Shown in pieces: positions 1-51,538 of a DNA stretch of 51,538 nucleotides. Position 1 is the first letter of the stretch. Every line of letters begins with the position of its first letter. Below the pieces are notes generated by a model. That model did not search any database and had not been told where the DNA came from. It was given only the letters and a program-made list of their open reading frames with translations. A program made the translations under genes and the position numbers. The stretch comes from a virus: IMG/VR virus record IMGVR_UViG_3300048571_000060, positions 1 through 51,538 of that record; one strand, 5' to 3'.

Positions 1-591
1 TCGTACAGTCGCAGAGTCCGACGCTCGTACAGTCGCAGAGCCCCACGCTTCAACAGTCGCAGAGTCCGACGCTCGTACAGTCGCAGAGTCCGACGCTCGT
101 ACAGTCGCAGAGCCCCACGCTTCAACAGTCGCAGAGCCCCACGCTTCAACAGTCGCAGAGTCCGACGCTCGTACAGTCGCAGAGCCCCACGCTTCAACAG
201 TCGCAGAGTCCGACGCTCGTACAGTCGCAGAGTCCGACGCTCGTACAGTCGCAGAGTCCGACGCTCGTACAGTCGCAGAGCCCCACGCTTCAACAGTCGC
301 AGAGTCCGACGCTCGTACAGTCGCAGAGTCCGTAATTAAATAACCTATATTTGTTGAAATATTAACATAGATTAAATGCTCATTACATAATTCTTGCCCC
401 AATTCAGCTAATAATGGACAGTCAATAACCTTGTTGTCACAGCAATAATTGAAATTATCAGTTATGACTTTAAATAACTCAGCAAATGTTTCAGACTTAA
501 ATGCTCTTTGATATTCTGATTGACACGCAGAAGCTTCTTTTGCTCTTTTTACGATTTCAGACTTAAAGTCTATAAATTTTTGGTTTTCCAT
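1..591 (-). CDS. SATV octad-repeat protein, N-terminal part (continues at 51538)
   Basis: ATG at 589-591; the frame stays open to base 1 (197 codons) and continues in frame at 51538, ending with TAA at 51257, for about 290 aa in total. Residues 1-87 form a non-repetitive helical-looking domain rich in Cys, Lys and Glu. From residue 88 there are tandem octads of two types, RASDSATV and EAWGSATV, encoded by the 24-bp DNA repeat. Short-period repeats of this kind resemble polymer-forming beta-helical proteins seen in Bacteroidetes and their phages; that fold is inferred. It lies 11 bp after the 108-aa gene and 7 bp before the 143-aa gene, so it belongs to the early minus operon. Function unknown. 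The number of octads may be wrong if the assembly collapsed repeats. Confidence 0.85.
   Translation of the reverse strand, partial: MENQKFIDFKSEIVKRAKEASACQSEYQRAFKSETFAELFKVITDNFNYCCDNKVIDCPLLAELGQELCNEHLIYVNISTNIGYLITDSATVRASDSATVEAWGSATVRASDSATVRASDSATVRASDSATVEAWGSATVRASDSATVEAWGSATVEAWGSATVRASDSATVRASDSATVEAWGSATVRASDSATVR
6..332. repeat. 24-bp tandem repeat array, left part
   Basis: Thirteen full 24-bp units and one partial, all starting CAGTCGCAGAG and ending in one of two 13-bp versions: A (TCCGACGCTCGTA) or B (CCCCACGCTTCAA). The order from position 6 is A B A A B B A B A A A B A. The array lies inside the minus-strand octad-repeat gene, each unit encoding eight residues. Confidence 0.98.
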
Positions 592-1321: not shown

Positions 1322-1331
1322 AATGTTTTTA

Positions 1332-2036
1332 GTTATATCTACGGAGCAAATGTAAGACGTTTTTTCGTTCCACCAAAACATTTCGCAAAAATCTGATAAA
1401 AAATGTGAAAGTTATATCAATTGCGGTTTTTTTATCGAGTTAAAAACACTTCACGACGATATAACGATTCAGTGTGATTGATTGCGAAGATGACTATAAA
1501 GTTATATCGTGTTTTTAAAACCATGTCAGATTCACAATACCACAATTCCGACGCTTGGCAAAGGTTTTTTTGTTATATCGTTAGTCTGGGTCGATTTTTG
1601 AACCTTTCACAACGCCGGCAATCAACCGGAAATACCCGGCAAGAAGACGTTACATAGCAGTTGATGTAGTGAAATGGAGTTGCGTGGCCATCTACTACTA
1701 CGACATCCGGCCGCTAGGCACGGTACCGGAAGGCGTTACATAGCAGTAGGTGGAGTGAATCTCTAGAGAAGTTACCAGGCTAATACTATAGGTAGAATCT
1801 CCACTACTACTCCACTGACCAACCCCTCCATAACCGCACACACAGGCCTGGTGTCGTAGTAGTTGAACAAAACGCCTACTCCACTAACTACAACAACTCA
1901 TTGATACCTAGATAGATAGATGACTTAAACCTACTACTACCTACTCCACTGATGAGTTATATCTATCACGACCGATATAACTAATAAGACGACTGACTCA
2001 GTGGCAAGTGTTGTCTTATTGTCTGAATGATATAAC
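1332..2036. repeat. eight copies of octamer GTTATATC in both orientations
   Basis: Plus-strand copies at 1332, 1411, 1501, 1572 and 1956; inverted copies (GATATAAC) at 1458, 1974 and 2029. Most are flanked by CG or by A/T runs. The pair at 1956 and 1974 is a head-to-head inverted repeat. Such density in about 700 bp fits binding sites for a regulator or replication initiator; the binding protein is unknown. Confidence 0.75.
1347..1386 (-). promoter_or_regulatory. strong Bacteroidetes-type early promoter
   Basis: On the minus strand TTTG (1377-1374), 19 bp, then TACATTTG (1354-1347) exactly match the TTTG-N19-TAnnTTTG consensus of the Bacteroidetes primary sigma factor. The -33 box overlaps a half-palindrome GCGAAATGTTTTGG (1373-1386) related to the operator-like sequence at four other early promoters. 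It would drive the 129-aa gene and the genes leftward through the circular junction. Confidence 0.8.
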
Positions 2037-2261
2037 TATCACAACTAACTGTCTGAATCGTTTAGTTACTTTGCTCGATTTCCTGTTTGGTCGCAATATG
2101 TTACGCACTTCAATTCACATCAACTGAGCACAGATTTCAGCCTTGTTATGTAGACCGTTAAGAATTTTTGTATATTTGTAAAAATAACAAAATTATCAAC
2201 GTCCGGCACGCCTTTAACCACGAGTCTTCCGGTCATTACGTAACCAAACATAACCAAATCA
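1387..2261. other. noncoding control region between divergent arms
   Basis: About 880 bp with no convincing gene. It holds the octamer repeats; a direct repeat GTTACATAGCAGT at 1649 and 1735; three copies of TACTCCACT(G/A)A at 1808, 1877 and 1942; a reverse-orientation GTGGAGT at 1750; palindromes CGGTACCG (1721), CTCTAGAG (1761) and CAGGCCTG (1843); and a GATA microsatellite near 1910. The part from 1600 to 1880 is clearly more GC-rich than its surroundings. Its position between divergent arms fits an origin or a regulatory hub; neither is proven. Confidence 0.65.
2171..2178 (+). promoter_or_regulatory. candidate late-arm -7 box
   Basis: TATATTTG matches the TAnnTTTG -7 element and lies 84 nt before the first late gene. 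The nearest upstream TTG (2143-2145) is 25 bp away, longer than the ideal 19-21, so the -33 element is poor; a phage factor might activate it. Confidence 0.4.
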
Positions 2262-2933
2262 ATGGCAGACTTGAATAAAGAAGAGTTCGCGGCAATGTGT
2301 CATACCACTGTTGCAATCATCAACACAAACATCAATCGTGAAAAGATTGTGTATGATAAAAAGGCAAAATTAATTGATTCAGACGACCCATTAAACAAAG
2401 CATTTTTCAGAAAGTATATGTCAATGTCTGAACAGAAAAAGATTAGAGTTCCAAAAGATGAAGACATAGCAAAACTGTATGACAAAGTGGTTCAAAAAGC
2501 CACTGCTGATGTTGAAACACAACAAAAAGAAACCAAACGAGCCAAGCAACACGACAAGTCACAGAAGAATGTTGACATGGCTGAACGTAAATTGGCCGCT
2601 GATACGCTGTTACAGGAAGCGAAAGCAGAAAAGGAACAAATGAACCTTCAAAAACTGGCTGGTAAATTAATTCCGGTTGATTTAGTGTTTGCGATTTTAA
2701 ACATTCACAATCACGACATATTTGCCACTTTTCAAAACGACGTTGAAAACCTTGCATCAGTGTACTGCGATATCTTGGCAGGCGGTGACCGTAAAAGACT
2801 GGCAGAGATAACGGGTAAGTTGAGTGAAAAGCTAAATGATTCAGTAACTCGCGCAAAGGATGTGGCGTTATCAAGTTTAGAAAATGCAATTGAAGATTAC
2901 CGTGAAACAAGAAGCCGCGGTGAAAGTAAATAA
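2262..2933 (+). CDS. terminase small subunit-like protein, 223 aa
   Basis: Likely the DNA-recognition subunit of the packaging motor. The call rests on position (first late gene, two genes before TerL) and architecture: a short N-terminal segment, a charged coiled coil at about residues 70-130, and a helical C-terminal part with the hydrophobic pattern seen in Nu1/TerS-like proteins. I see no clear helix-turn-helix signature, so this is a family-level inference. The stop at 2931-2933 is followed directly by the 25-nt shared leader element. Confidence 0.55.
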   Translation: MADLNKEEFAAMCHTTVAIINTNINREKIVYDKKAKLIDSDDPLNKAFFRKYMSMSEQKKIRVPKDEDIAKLYDKVVQKATADVETQQKETKRAKQHDKSQKNVDMAERKLAADTLLQEAKAEKEQMNLQKLAGKLIPVDLVFAILNIHNHDIFATFQNDVENLASVYCDILAGGDRKRLAEITGKLSEKLNDSVTRAKDVALSSLENAIEDYRETRSRGESK

Positions 2934-2935
2934 AA

Positions 2936-2960
2936 GGAAAGCTGATGCCTGAAGTAAGCA
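2936..2960 (+). promoter_or_regulatory. shared 25-nt leader element, copy 1
   Basis: This 25-nt sequence (starts AGGAAAGCTG, ends GAAGTAAGC) is identical to the reverse complement of 47828-47852. In both places it follows a stop codon within a few bases and lies about 20 nt before the ATG of the next gene, here the Acb2-like gene at 2981. A role in translation or mRNA processing is inferred. Confidence 0.7.
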
Positions 2961-2980
2961 TAAATTTAATTTAAAAAATC

Positions 2981-3220
2981 ATGAGTAAAACTATTGGAGA
3001 AAAAAGGGTGAGAACAGATTTCAACCCTGGCAACAATGACACGGTTCAAAATTTAAAAGAAAAATTCGCTCATCTAATTAATGATGTTGAAGAATTAAAA
3101 TCATTTAAAGTACCTGGTCCAGGCCCAACAACTGACGGTGAAAAATTACGTTTGATTTCACTTGCTCAAACGGCGCTTGAAGAAGCGTGTATGTGGACAG
3201 TGAAAGCCGCTACGGCTTAA
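2981..3220 (+). CDS. Acb2-like anti-CBASS cyclic-nucleotide sponge
   Basis: At 79 aa it has the Acb2 size and pattern: RVRTDFNP near residues 9-16, a Lys-rich helix with LI at 32-33, a Gly/Pro linker (45-51), and a C-terminal helix with ALEEACMWTVKAAT (65-78). Acb2 (T4 Vs.4-like) proteins are small helical hairpins forming hexamers that sequester cyclic di- and trinucleotides and so block CBASS and sometimes Thoeris signalling. Assignment is by recalled sequence pattern, without an alignment. It is preceded by the shared leader element and followed by a terminator, so it may be regulated separately from the packaging genes. Confidence 0.75.
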   Translation: MSKTIGEKRVRTDFNPGNNDTVQNLKEKFAHLINDVEELKSFKVPGPGPTTDGEKLRLISLAQTALEEACMWTVKAATA

Positions 3221-3230
3221 TTGACTTTAA

Positions 3231-3264
3231 AGGGCGGGGTATATTACTCGCCCTTATTTTTTTT
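3231..3264 (+). terminator. intrinsic terminator after the Acb2-like gene
   Basis: GGGCG stem, TATATTACT-containing loop, CGCCC, then TTATTTTTTTT. It lies inside the upstream extension of the TerL frame, which argues that TerL starts at 3274 and that TerL is reached by read-through. Confidence 0.75.
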
Positions 3265-3273
3265 GAAGAAATT

Positions 3274-5400: not shown

Positions 5401-5435
5401 AAGACCCAGATAAAATTATTCTGGGTCTTTTTTTG
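5401..5435 (+). terminator. intrinsic terminator after TerL
   Basis: A perfect 10-bp stem AAGACCCAGA / TCTGGGTCTT (5401-5410 with 5420-5429), a 9-nt AT-rich loop, then a T tract. It separates the packaging transcript from the head operon. Confidence 0.9.
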
Positions 5436-5464
5436 ATTAGTTGATACCTTTTTTTGTAAGTTTG
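5432..5464 (+). promoter_or_regulatory. promoter of the head operon
   Basis: TTTG (5432-5435), 21 bp, TAAGTTTG (5457-5464) fits the Bacteroidetes consensus. Only 7 nt separate the -7 box from the ATG at 5472, so the transcript would be leaderless or nearly so. Confidence 0.7.
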
Positions 5465-5471
5465 TGAGATT

Positions 5472-5759
5472 ATGGAATGCACTGTCAAAGAATATATTCA
5501 ATCCAAAGCCAGTCTTGATTTAAAGATTGCCGCAATAACGTCGCTGATAGACAACATGCTACTTTCAGCCATTGACGCTATCGATACCAGCGGAACTGCT
5601 TCATATAGTATGGACGACGGTCAAATGAAAGTGACGACTGAATATCGTAGCATAGAACAAATCACGAAAGGAATTTTAGCTCTTGAAAAAATTCAACAAG
5701 TATATATCAACAGACGAAACGGATACGTTACGGTTCTACGAAGCCGCTTAAATTATTAA
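5472..5759 (+). CDS. gpW-like head-tail joining protein
   Basis: 95 aa between TerL and portal, the position of lambda W. The sequence is an amphipathic helix, a short beta segment (YSMDDGQMKVTTEYRS), then a helix with ALEKIQQVYINRR, as in the small gpW fold that plugs the portal ring before tail joining. Family assignment combines context and pattern. The first gene after the promoter at 5432-5464; portal follows after 3 bp. Confidence 0.65.
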   Translation: MECTVKEYIQSKASLDLKIAAITSLIDNMLLSAIDAIDTSGTASYSMDDGQMKVTTEYRSIEQITKGILALEKIQQVYINRRNGYVTVLRSRLNY

Positions 5760-51256: not shown

Positions 51257-51538
51257 TTATTGGTTCTTTTGTTCAAATACCGCGATATTTTCAGCCAACA
51301 CAATTCTATTTTGATTTGTGTATCTTAAAATTACTTTGTCTGAAATTTTATGTTCAATCGTATTGTACGAATTAATATACGCAGAGTCCGACGCTCGTAC
51401 AGTCGCAGAGTTCCACGCTCGTACAGTCGCAGAGTCCGACGCTCGTACAGTCGCAGAGCCCCACGCTTCAACAGTCGCAGAGTCCGACGCTCGTACAGTC
51501 GCAGAGTCCGACGCTCGTACAGTCGCAGAGCCCCACGC
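51257..51538 (-). CDS. SATV octad-repeat protein, C-terminal part (continuation of 1-591)
   Basis: The frame enters at 51538 with AWGSATV, runs through six octads including a hybrid RAWNSATV, and continues as RASDSAYINSYNTIEHKISD and VILRYTNQNRIVLAENIAVF to TAA at 51257-51259. Codons at base 1 (cga, 3-1) and 51538 (gcg) join in frame, giving an octad RAWGSATV at the junction. The C-terminal 35 residues look like a beta cap. Confidence 0.85.
   Translation of the reverse strand, partial: AWGSATVRASDSATVRASDSATVEAWGSATVRASDSATVRAWNSATVRASDSAYINSYNTIEHKISDKVILRYTNQNRIVLAENIAVFEQKNQ
51381..51538. repeat. 24-bp tandem repeat array, right part
   Basis: Partial unit, a hybrid unit (51400-51423, TTCCACGC core with TCGTA end), then A, B, A, A and a truncated B to the window end. 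Continuous in phase with the left array if the molecule is circular. Confidence 0.97.

What the first reader, a model, noticed from the sequence alone, without database searches (positions are those of the whole stretch)
2981..3220. Acb2-like anti-CBASS gene between terminase subunits
The 79-aa product carries the Acb2 pattern. Its place in the late packaging genes with its own leader element and terminator suggests separate early expression.
Basis: partly seen in the sequence, partly recalled or inferred. Interest (0 to 1): 0.7.

Follow-up and report, generated by a model that had tools for sequence, protein, structure and literature searches.

The report
Acb2-like sponge gene between terminase genes
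A phage related to Cellulophaga and Flavobacterium phages carries, wedged between two DNA-packaging genes, a small gene for a divergent relative of proteins that soak up the alarm molecules of bacterial immunity; it is a real but ordinary new member of a known family, with an interesting twist in its binding pocket and location.

Summary
The 79-aa ORF at 2981-3220 is real and belongs to the Acb2/Tad1 hairpin family: PF24729, E 4.9e-12, 46.3 bits against a cut-off of 27. A profile of its relatives finds T4 Vs.4 (Acb2, PDB 7uq2) as best solved match. Profile-profile comparison with canonical Acb2 gives 97.1%. AlphaFold2 predicts the Acb2 protomer: short N-terminal helix plus two long helices, pLDDT 92.6.

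It is not canonical Acb2. It sits in a large, apparently uncharacterised subfamily with an invariant 'G-x7-F-N-P'-type leader. The ligand lysine (K26) and threonine (T64) are kept; the protein has no tyrosine, so Y8/Y11 is missing (F14 may replace it), and T4's stacking F82 is a threonine.

The position between TerS (probable) and TerL is confirmed. Same-lineage contigs L003-L005 have TerS and TerL 2-9 bp apart with no gene between, so this is an inserted cargo gene (moron). The terminator is supported (z -4.0). The 'own leader element' and 'separate early expression' are not: the 47-bp gap has no promoter box and no structure.

Most likely role: a cyclic-oligonucleotide sponge against CBASS, untested.

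The parts
2981..3220 (+). 79-aa Acb2/Tad1 hairpin protein, FNP subfamily
   Evidence: PF24729 E 4.9e-12; AF2 pLDDT 92.6; hhalign to canonical Acb2 97.1%
3020..3028 (+). codons F14-N15-P16: family-wide loop motif before helix 1; F14 invariant in 49 of 49 aligned members, candidate replacement for T4 Tyr8
   Evidence: replacement is inference
3056..3058 (+). codon K26, invariant in 49 of 49; aligned with T4 Acb2 K23 (PaP2 Acb2 K26)
3170..3172 (+). codon T64 (T in 44 of 49), aligned with T4 Acb2 T68, whose T68M change lowers binding (PMC12657230)
3191..3208 (+). codons M71-W72-T73-V74-K75-A76, core of helix 2; M71, W72, V74, K75, A76 invariant in 49 of 49
3230..3265 (+). intrinsic-terminator-like hairpin with T8 tail between the hairpin gene and TerL
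2262..2933 (+). probable small terminase subunit (223 aa)
   Evidence: phrog_5193; weak phrog_57 terminase small subunit; position before TerL here and in L003-L005 and L007-L009
3274..5331 (+). large terminase subunit, GpA type (685 aa)
   Evidence: PF05876, PF20454; phrog_15
2945..2974 (+). 9-codon ORF MPEVSINLI between TerS and the hairpin gene; probably chance, the only thing that could be called a leader
   Evidence: read from sequence; no structure
2171..2178 (+). TATATTTG, Bacteroidota -7-like box 83 bp before TerS; possible promoter of the TerS-hairpin transcript
   Evidence: the motif as a whole is not above chance in the window (79 against 76)

Best explanation
The gene is a phage counter-defence cargo gene (moron) inserted at the TerS-TerL junction. 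Its product is a small Acb2/Tad1-hairpin protein that assembles from helical hairpins, by analogy into a hexamer, and sequesters cyclic oligonucleotides made by the host's CBASS enzymes, so that the CBASS effector is not activated. Shown here: homology to Acb2, the predicted protomer fold, retention of K26 and T64, absence of the gene from the same junction in kin, and the terminator. Inferred: hexamer, ligand binding, CBASS as target, and transcription from a promoter before TerS. Because the dinucleotide-stacking tyrosine and T4's F82 are missing while the helix core is kept, the spectrum may lean to cyclic trinucleotides or to a different set of dinucleotides from T4 Acb2.
For: PF24729 46.3 bits, cut-off 27; 45 of 49 family members match PF24729 and no other Pfam family. 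Profile hits T4 Vs.4 first among all solved chains: E 0.001 and 1.5e-4. hhalign 97.1%, E 5.9e-11, with K26 on T4 K23 and T64 on T68. All 49 family members score 11.5-34.1 bits against a profile of canonical Acb2, window 25.4, against a maximum of 13.1 in 9760 shuffles. AF2: helices 5-9, 20-41, 52-78, the layout described for Acb2 (PMC12043709); best VIA-align match is 7uq2, Vs.4 with cGAMP, Z 7.3, 65 residues; the only BFVD match with E <= 0.001 is named Acb2/Tad1 hairpin domain protein. Cargo character: TerS and TerL nearly abut in L003, L004 and L005, and Cellulophaga phage phi3:1 carries two unrelated small genes there.
Against: No binding or phage data. The protein has no tyrosine; T4 Y8 is needed for binding (PMC12657218, PMC12657230) and is invariant in nine canonical or bridging Acb2. 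T4 F82 falls on T78. Fold match is moderate: Z 7.3 against 6.4-6.7 for unrelated helical proteins, and Foldseek alone gives no PDB match with E <= 0.001. Sequence alone cannot show oligomerisation. The host and its defences are unknown.
Confidence: 0.66

Rival explanations
1. A hairpin sponge whose main target is another nucleotide signal (Thoeris gcADPR, type III CRISPR cyclic oligoadenylate, or a Panoptes-type decoy nucleotide), the F-N-P loop making a new pocket.
For: The Pfam family covers both Acb2 and Tad1. The loop between the N-terminal helix and helix 1 is about 10 residues in the model and its F-N-P motif is nearly invariant across a subfamily that lacks the canonical leader. Acb2 and Tad1 are known to bind several signals (PMC12043709).
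Against: The Tad1 N-terminal beta-sheet domain described in PMC12043709 is absent from a 79-aa protein; K26 and T64 positions of Acb2 are kept.
Confidence: 0.14
2. A packaging accessory: a small helical protein that works with TerS or TerL, its Acb2 likeness reflecting ancestry only.
For: Relatives lie beside terminase genes in several unrelated phages: Aaphi23, Pmp11, DSL-LC05, L023 (2 bp before TerL) and L065; 27 of 116 loci have a detectable TerL in the held flank.
Against: Same-lineage contigs L003-L005 have TerS and TerL but no such gene between them, and tblastn found no relative in the Cellulophaga phages with 74% identical TerL. Other relatives lie next to ssb, Erf, Sak4, helicase, polymerase, baseplate hub or internal virion protein genes.
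Confidence: 0.1
3. A neutral or decaying passenger without present function.
For: The C-terminal aromatic found in most relatives is missing (W79 in 39 of 49; A79 here), and the loop 42-51 is longer and less confidently predicted.
Against: All 11 invariant columns of the family are intact, the frame is open and the fold confident. L020, from another virus contig, shares the same C-terminus (KAATA), so the missing aromatic is a subgroup trait.
Confidence: 0.06

Closest known systems
T4 Vs.4 (Acb2, PDB 7uq2) and Pseudomonas phage PaP2 p26 (Acb2, PDB 8h2j)
   Same: Short N-terminal helix plus two long helices; C-terminal core with lysine K23/K26 and threonine T68/T74 positions kept
   Different: No Tyr8/Tyr11; G-x7-F-N-P leader in place of the GY[KR] leader; F82 position is Thr; 79 aa against 88-94; low identity, so only profiles connect them
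Pfam PF24729 Acb2_Tad1_hairpin, F-N-P subfamily (Flavobacterium phages FCV-1 and elemo, Haemophilus phage Aaphi23, Pasteurella phage Pmp11, phage DSL-LC05)
   Same: Full-length similarity at about 37-50% identity, same F-N and M-W-x-V-K-A motifs
   Different: Genomic place varies; most have Trp or Tyr after the last Thr, the window protein has Ala
Tad1 (Thoeris anti-defence 1)
   Same: Shares the two-helix hairpin domain (Pfam family description)
   Different: Tad1 has an N-terminal beta-sheet domain (PMC12043709) that is absent here
Cellulophaga phages phi3:1 and phiSM (genome backbone)
   Same: TerL 74.5%, TerS 50% and portal 64% identical, same order
   Different: Two unrelated small genes at the TerS-TerL junction and no hairpin gene found

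Membership tests
Acb2/Tad1 hairpin family (PF24729) | match to the curated model above its gathering score | tested here: met
   46.3 bits against 27, residues 15-78 of the protein to 3-57 of 58
Acb2/Tad1 hairpin family (PF24729) | two long antiparallel helices | tested here: met
   helices 20-41 and 52-78, pLDDT mostly above 90; VIA-align 7uq2 Z 7.3, though other helical proteins come close
canonical Acb2 | detectable homology to proven Acb2 (T4 Vs.4, PaP2 p26) | tested here: met
   hhalign 97.1%; hmmsearch E 1.5e-4 to 7uq2; profile score above all shuffles
canonical Acb2 | dinucleotide-binding Tyr (T4 Y8, PaP2 Y11), invariant in nine homologues | tested here: not met
   no Tyr anywhere in the 79 aa; N-terminal region not aligned by hhalign; F14 is a candidate substitute only
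canonical Acb2 | conserved Lys of helix 1 (T4 K23, PaP2 K26) | tested here: met
   K26 aligned, invariant in 49 members
canonical Acb2 | Thr68 of T4, T68M lowers binding (PMC12657230) | tested here: met
   T64 aligned; T in 44 of 49
canonical Acb2 | Phe82 of T4 that stacks on the base (PMC12657218) | tested here: not met
   aligned residue is T78; next residue is A79 where most relatives have W
canonical Acb2 | hexamer that binds 3',3'-cGAMP and cA3 and inhibits CBASS | not testable with these tools
   needs protein and phage assays
Tad1 | N-terminal antiparallel beta-sheet domain | tested here: not met
   model has helices only
moron (cargo gene) | gene between two conserved phage genes that is missing from kin | tested here: met
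   TerS and TerL 2-9 bp apart without a gene between in L003, L004 and L005; different genes there in phi3:1
moron (cargo gene) | own promoter and terminator | tested here: inconclusive
   terminator supported; no promoter box found in the 47-bp gap, but consensus scans are weak evidence

The most novel reading that the evidence does not exclude
The F-N-P subfamily is a functionally distinct class of hairpin sponges: a longer N-terminal loop with an invariant Phe replaces the canonical Tyr site, giving a different ligand spectrum, and these genes are repeatedly carried beside terminase genes, where they would be made at the time that late products trigger host signalling.
Probability: 0.25. 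Interest if true: 0.62.

Novelty: new member of a known kind. Interest (0 to 1): 0.4.

Why it matters
Acb2-type sponges have been studied mainly in Pseudomonas and enteric phages. This gene and its kin show the hairpin family across phages and prophages of Bacteroidota, Proteobacteria and others (442 relatives from one pattern scan of viral contigs; 24 in genomes), with a changed binding leader. If it works, it widens the known range of phages that escape nucleotide-signal immunity and gives small, testable variants for learning which residues set ligand choice. The empty junctions in kin make it easy to recognise cargo at the TerS-TerL junction.

Tried and rejected
phmmer with the single sequence against solved chains found nothing real; the profile was needed. 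NCBIfam has no model for it. A direct tblastn link to T4 Acb2 was not seen; only profiles connect them. The MAFFT alignment of seven sequences misplaced T4's N-terminus and was not used. A papers search for the mutant names R67A, Y11A and K26A with Acb2 found nothing, so the role of PaP2 R67 in cyclic-trinucleotide binding, which I recall and which would fall on R57 here, stays unverified. Foldseek against PDB gave no significant match; the VIA-align Z of 7.3 is within the range of unrelated helical proteins and is used only together with the profile evidence. The neighbour tally shows mixed surroundings, so terminase adjacency is common but not a rule; the count of 27 of 116 uses four seed families, truncated loci and some redundant loci, so it is rough. 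CD-NTase (PF18144) was found over cut-off in 2 of 7 Bacteroidota genomes that carry a relative; too few for a conclusion.

Full report
What is there. The window is a whole IMG/VR virus record of 51,538 bp. The same 24-bp array stands at both ends (1-332 and 51380-51538), so it is probably a circular assembly. Main genes run rightward from 2262 to about 28.4 kb and leftward from about 51.2 kb to 28.4 kb. The right half encodes a beta clamp, a VapE-like protein and a helicase, the left end TerS, TerL and portal. The nearest named phages by TerL are Cellulophaga phages phiSM and phi3:1 (74.5%).

The observation. The ORF 2981-3220 is the second gene of the rightward unit. It matches Pfam PF24729 at 46.3 bits (cut-off 27). 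The terminator-like hairpin at 3230-3255 is better than all 200 shuffles. The supposed leader is not supported: no fold and no sigma-70-like or Bacteroidota promoter box in 2934-2980; only a 9-codon ORF. 'Separate early expression' has no support. The first box-like site upstream is TATATTTG at 2171, before TerS, but that motif is at chance level in the window (79 against 76), so even this is a guess.

What it is. tblastn finds relatives at 37-49% identity in Flavobacterium phages, Aaphi23, Pmp11 and DSL-LC05. An alignment of six reached 442 viral-contig stretches, of which 80 were fetched, and 24 genome loci. In 49 aligned members, G6, F14, V22, K26, A30, A69, M71, W72, V74, K75 and A76 are invariant. 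The profile finds T4 Vs.4 as the best solved chain (E 0.001 and 1.5e-4), and hhalign against nine canonical or bridging Acb2 proteins gives 97.1%. Every one of the 49 scores 11.5 bits or more against a canonical Acb2 profile, window 25.4 bits, where 9760 shuffles reach at most 13.1. AlphaFold2 gives helices 5-9, 20-41 and 52-78 at pLDDT 92.6, the layout described for Acb2 (PMC12043709). Structure search ranks 7uq2 (Vs.4 with cGAMP) first with VIA-align, Z 7.3, but unrelated helical proteins reach 6.7, and Foldseek alone finds nothing significant in PDB. In BFVD the only match with E <= 0.001 is an Acb2/Tad1 hairpin protein.

Binding residues. T4 Acb2 needs Y8 and F82 for dinucleotide binding (PMC12657218; Y8A also PMC12657230), and T68M lowers binding (PMC12657230). 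By the alignments, T68 corresponds to T64 (kept) and K23 (PaP2 K26) to K26 (kept, invariant in the subfamily). F82 corresponds to T78 (not kept). Y8 has no counterpart, as the protein has no Tyr. F14 lies about as far before helix 1 as Y8 does in T4 and is invariant, so it is the natural candidate for the stacking residue; that is inference. From memory, PaP2/PaMx33 R67 is part of the trinucleotide site; it would fall on R57 (R in 44 of 49), which I could not verify in a paper. This pattern is why I expect a sponge whose spectrum may differ from T4's.

Where it came from. In three contigs of the same lineage (L003, L004 and L005; TerS 47-50%, TerL 70-76%), TerS and TerL are 2-9 bp apart with no gene between (L004 and L005 are very similar). 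In phi3:1 two unrelated small genes sit there, and in FCV-1 two others. The junction is therefore a place where cargo comes and goes, and packaging does not need the gene. Other relatives also lie near terminases: L023 (2 bp before TerL) and L065 (TerL then portal) are in the same 'RVR' subgroup as the window protein; Aaphi23 and Pmp11 have it just before terS and DSL-LC05 shortly after terL. Yet FCV-1, elemo and others have it among replication genes, and L020 beside a baseplate hub gene. Position is thus recurrent, not fixed.

How it would work. Made from the rightward transcript with TerS and cut off by the terminator before TerL, the protein would accumulate, oligomerise and hold cyclic oligonucleotides, so that CBASS effectors stay off. 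A sponge acts by amount, so a promoter-proximal place with its own terminator would suit it. Every step after homology is inference. How TerL is then transcribed (read-through or a promoter not seen) is open.

Membership and novelty. It is a member of the Acb2/Tad1 hairpin family by the family's own test. I do not file it as canonical Acb2, since the Tyr and Phe82 features were tested and not met; it is Acb2-like. The family is known; the subfamily appears uncharacterised in the papers I could search, but the primary Acb2 papers are not in that library, so members of it may have been tested there.

Noticed in passing
window 1331-2037: The 9-mer AGTTATATC (or its complement) occurs six times in the 51.5-kb window, all in this stretch at the divergent gap before TerS, against 0.35 expected; inverted pairs such as 1404-1419/2028-2043. 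Looks like operator or origin iterons.
   Followed up: partly
window 1-332 and 51380-51538: 24-bp GC-rich tandem array (two unit types) at both ends of an AT-rich genome, about 20 copies across the circular join; the unit was not found in other viral contigs.
   Followed up: partly
window 1643-1673 and 1729-1759; 1807, 1876, 1941: Further direct repeats (31 nt twice; CTACTCCACTGAC three times) in the non-coding stretch 1382-2261.
   Followed up: no
window, whole: The two-box Bacteroidota promoter pattern TTTG-N17-23-TAnnTTTG occurs 14 times against 5.8 expected, no shuffle of 100 reaching it; one site (5432-5464) lies just before the gene at 5472.
   Followed up: no
L009:667-760 (Flavobacterium phage FCV-1.01): After TerS a terminator-like hairpin and then a TATATTTG box precede the unrelated cargo genes before TerL (sequence read), so cargo at this junction can carry its own promoter there.
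   Followed up: partly
window 2981-3220 against PHROG phrog_717: A 289-position phage family of unknown function matches the hairpin protein at positions 211-281, which suggests fusions of the hairpin domain to a longer N-terminal part.
   Followed up: no
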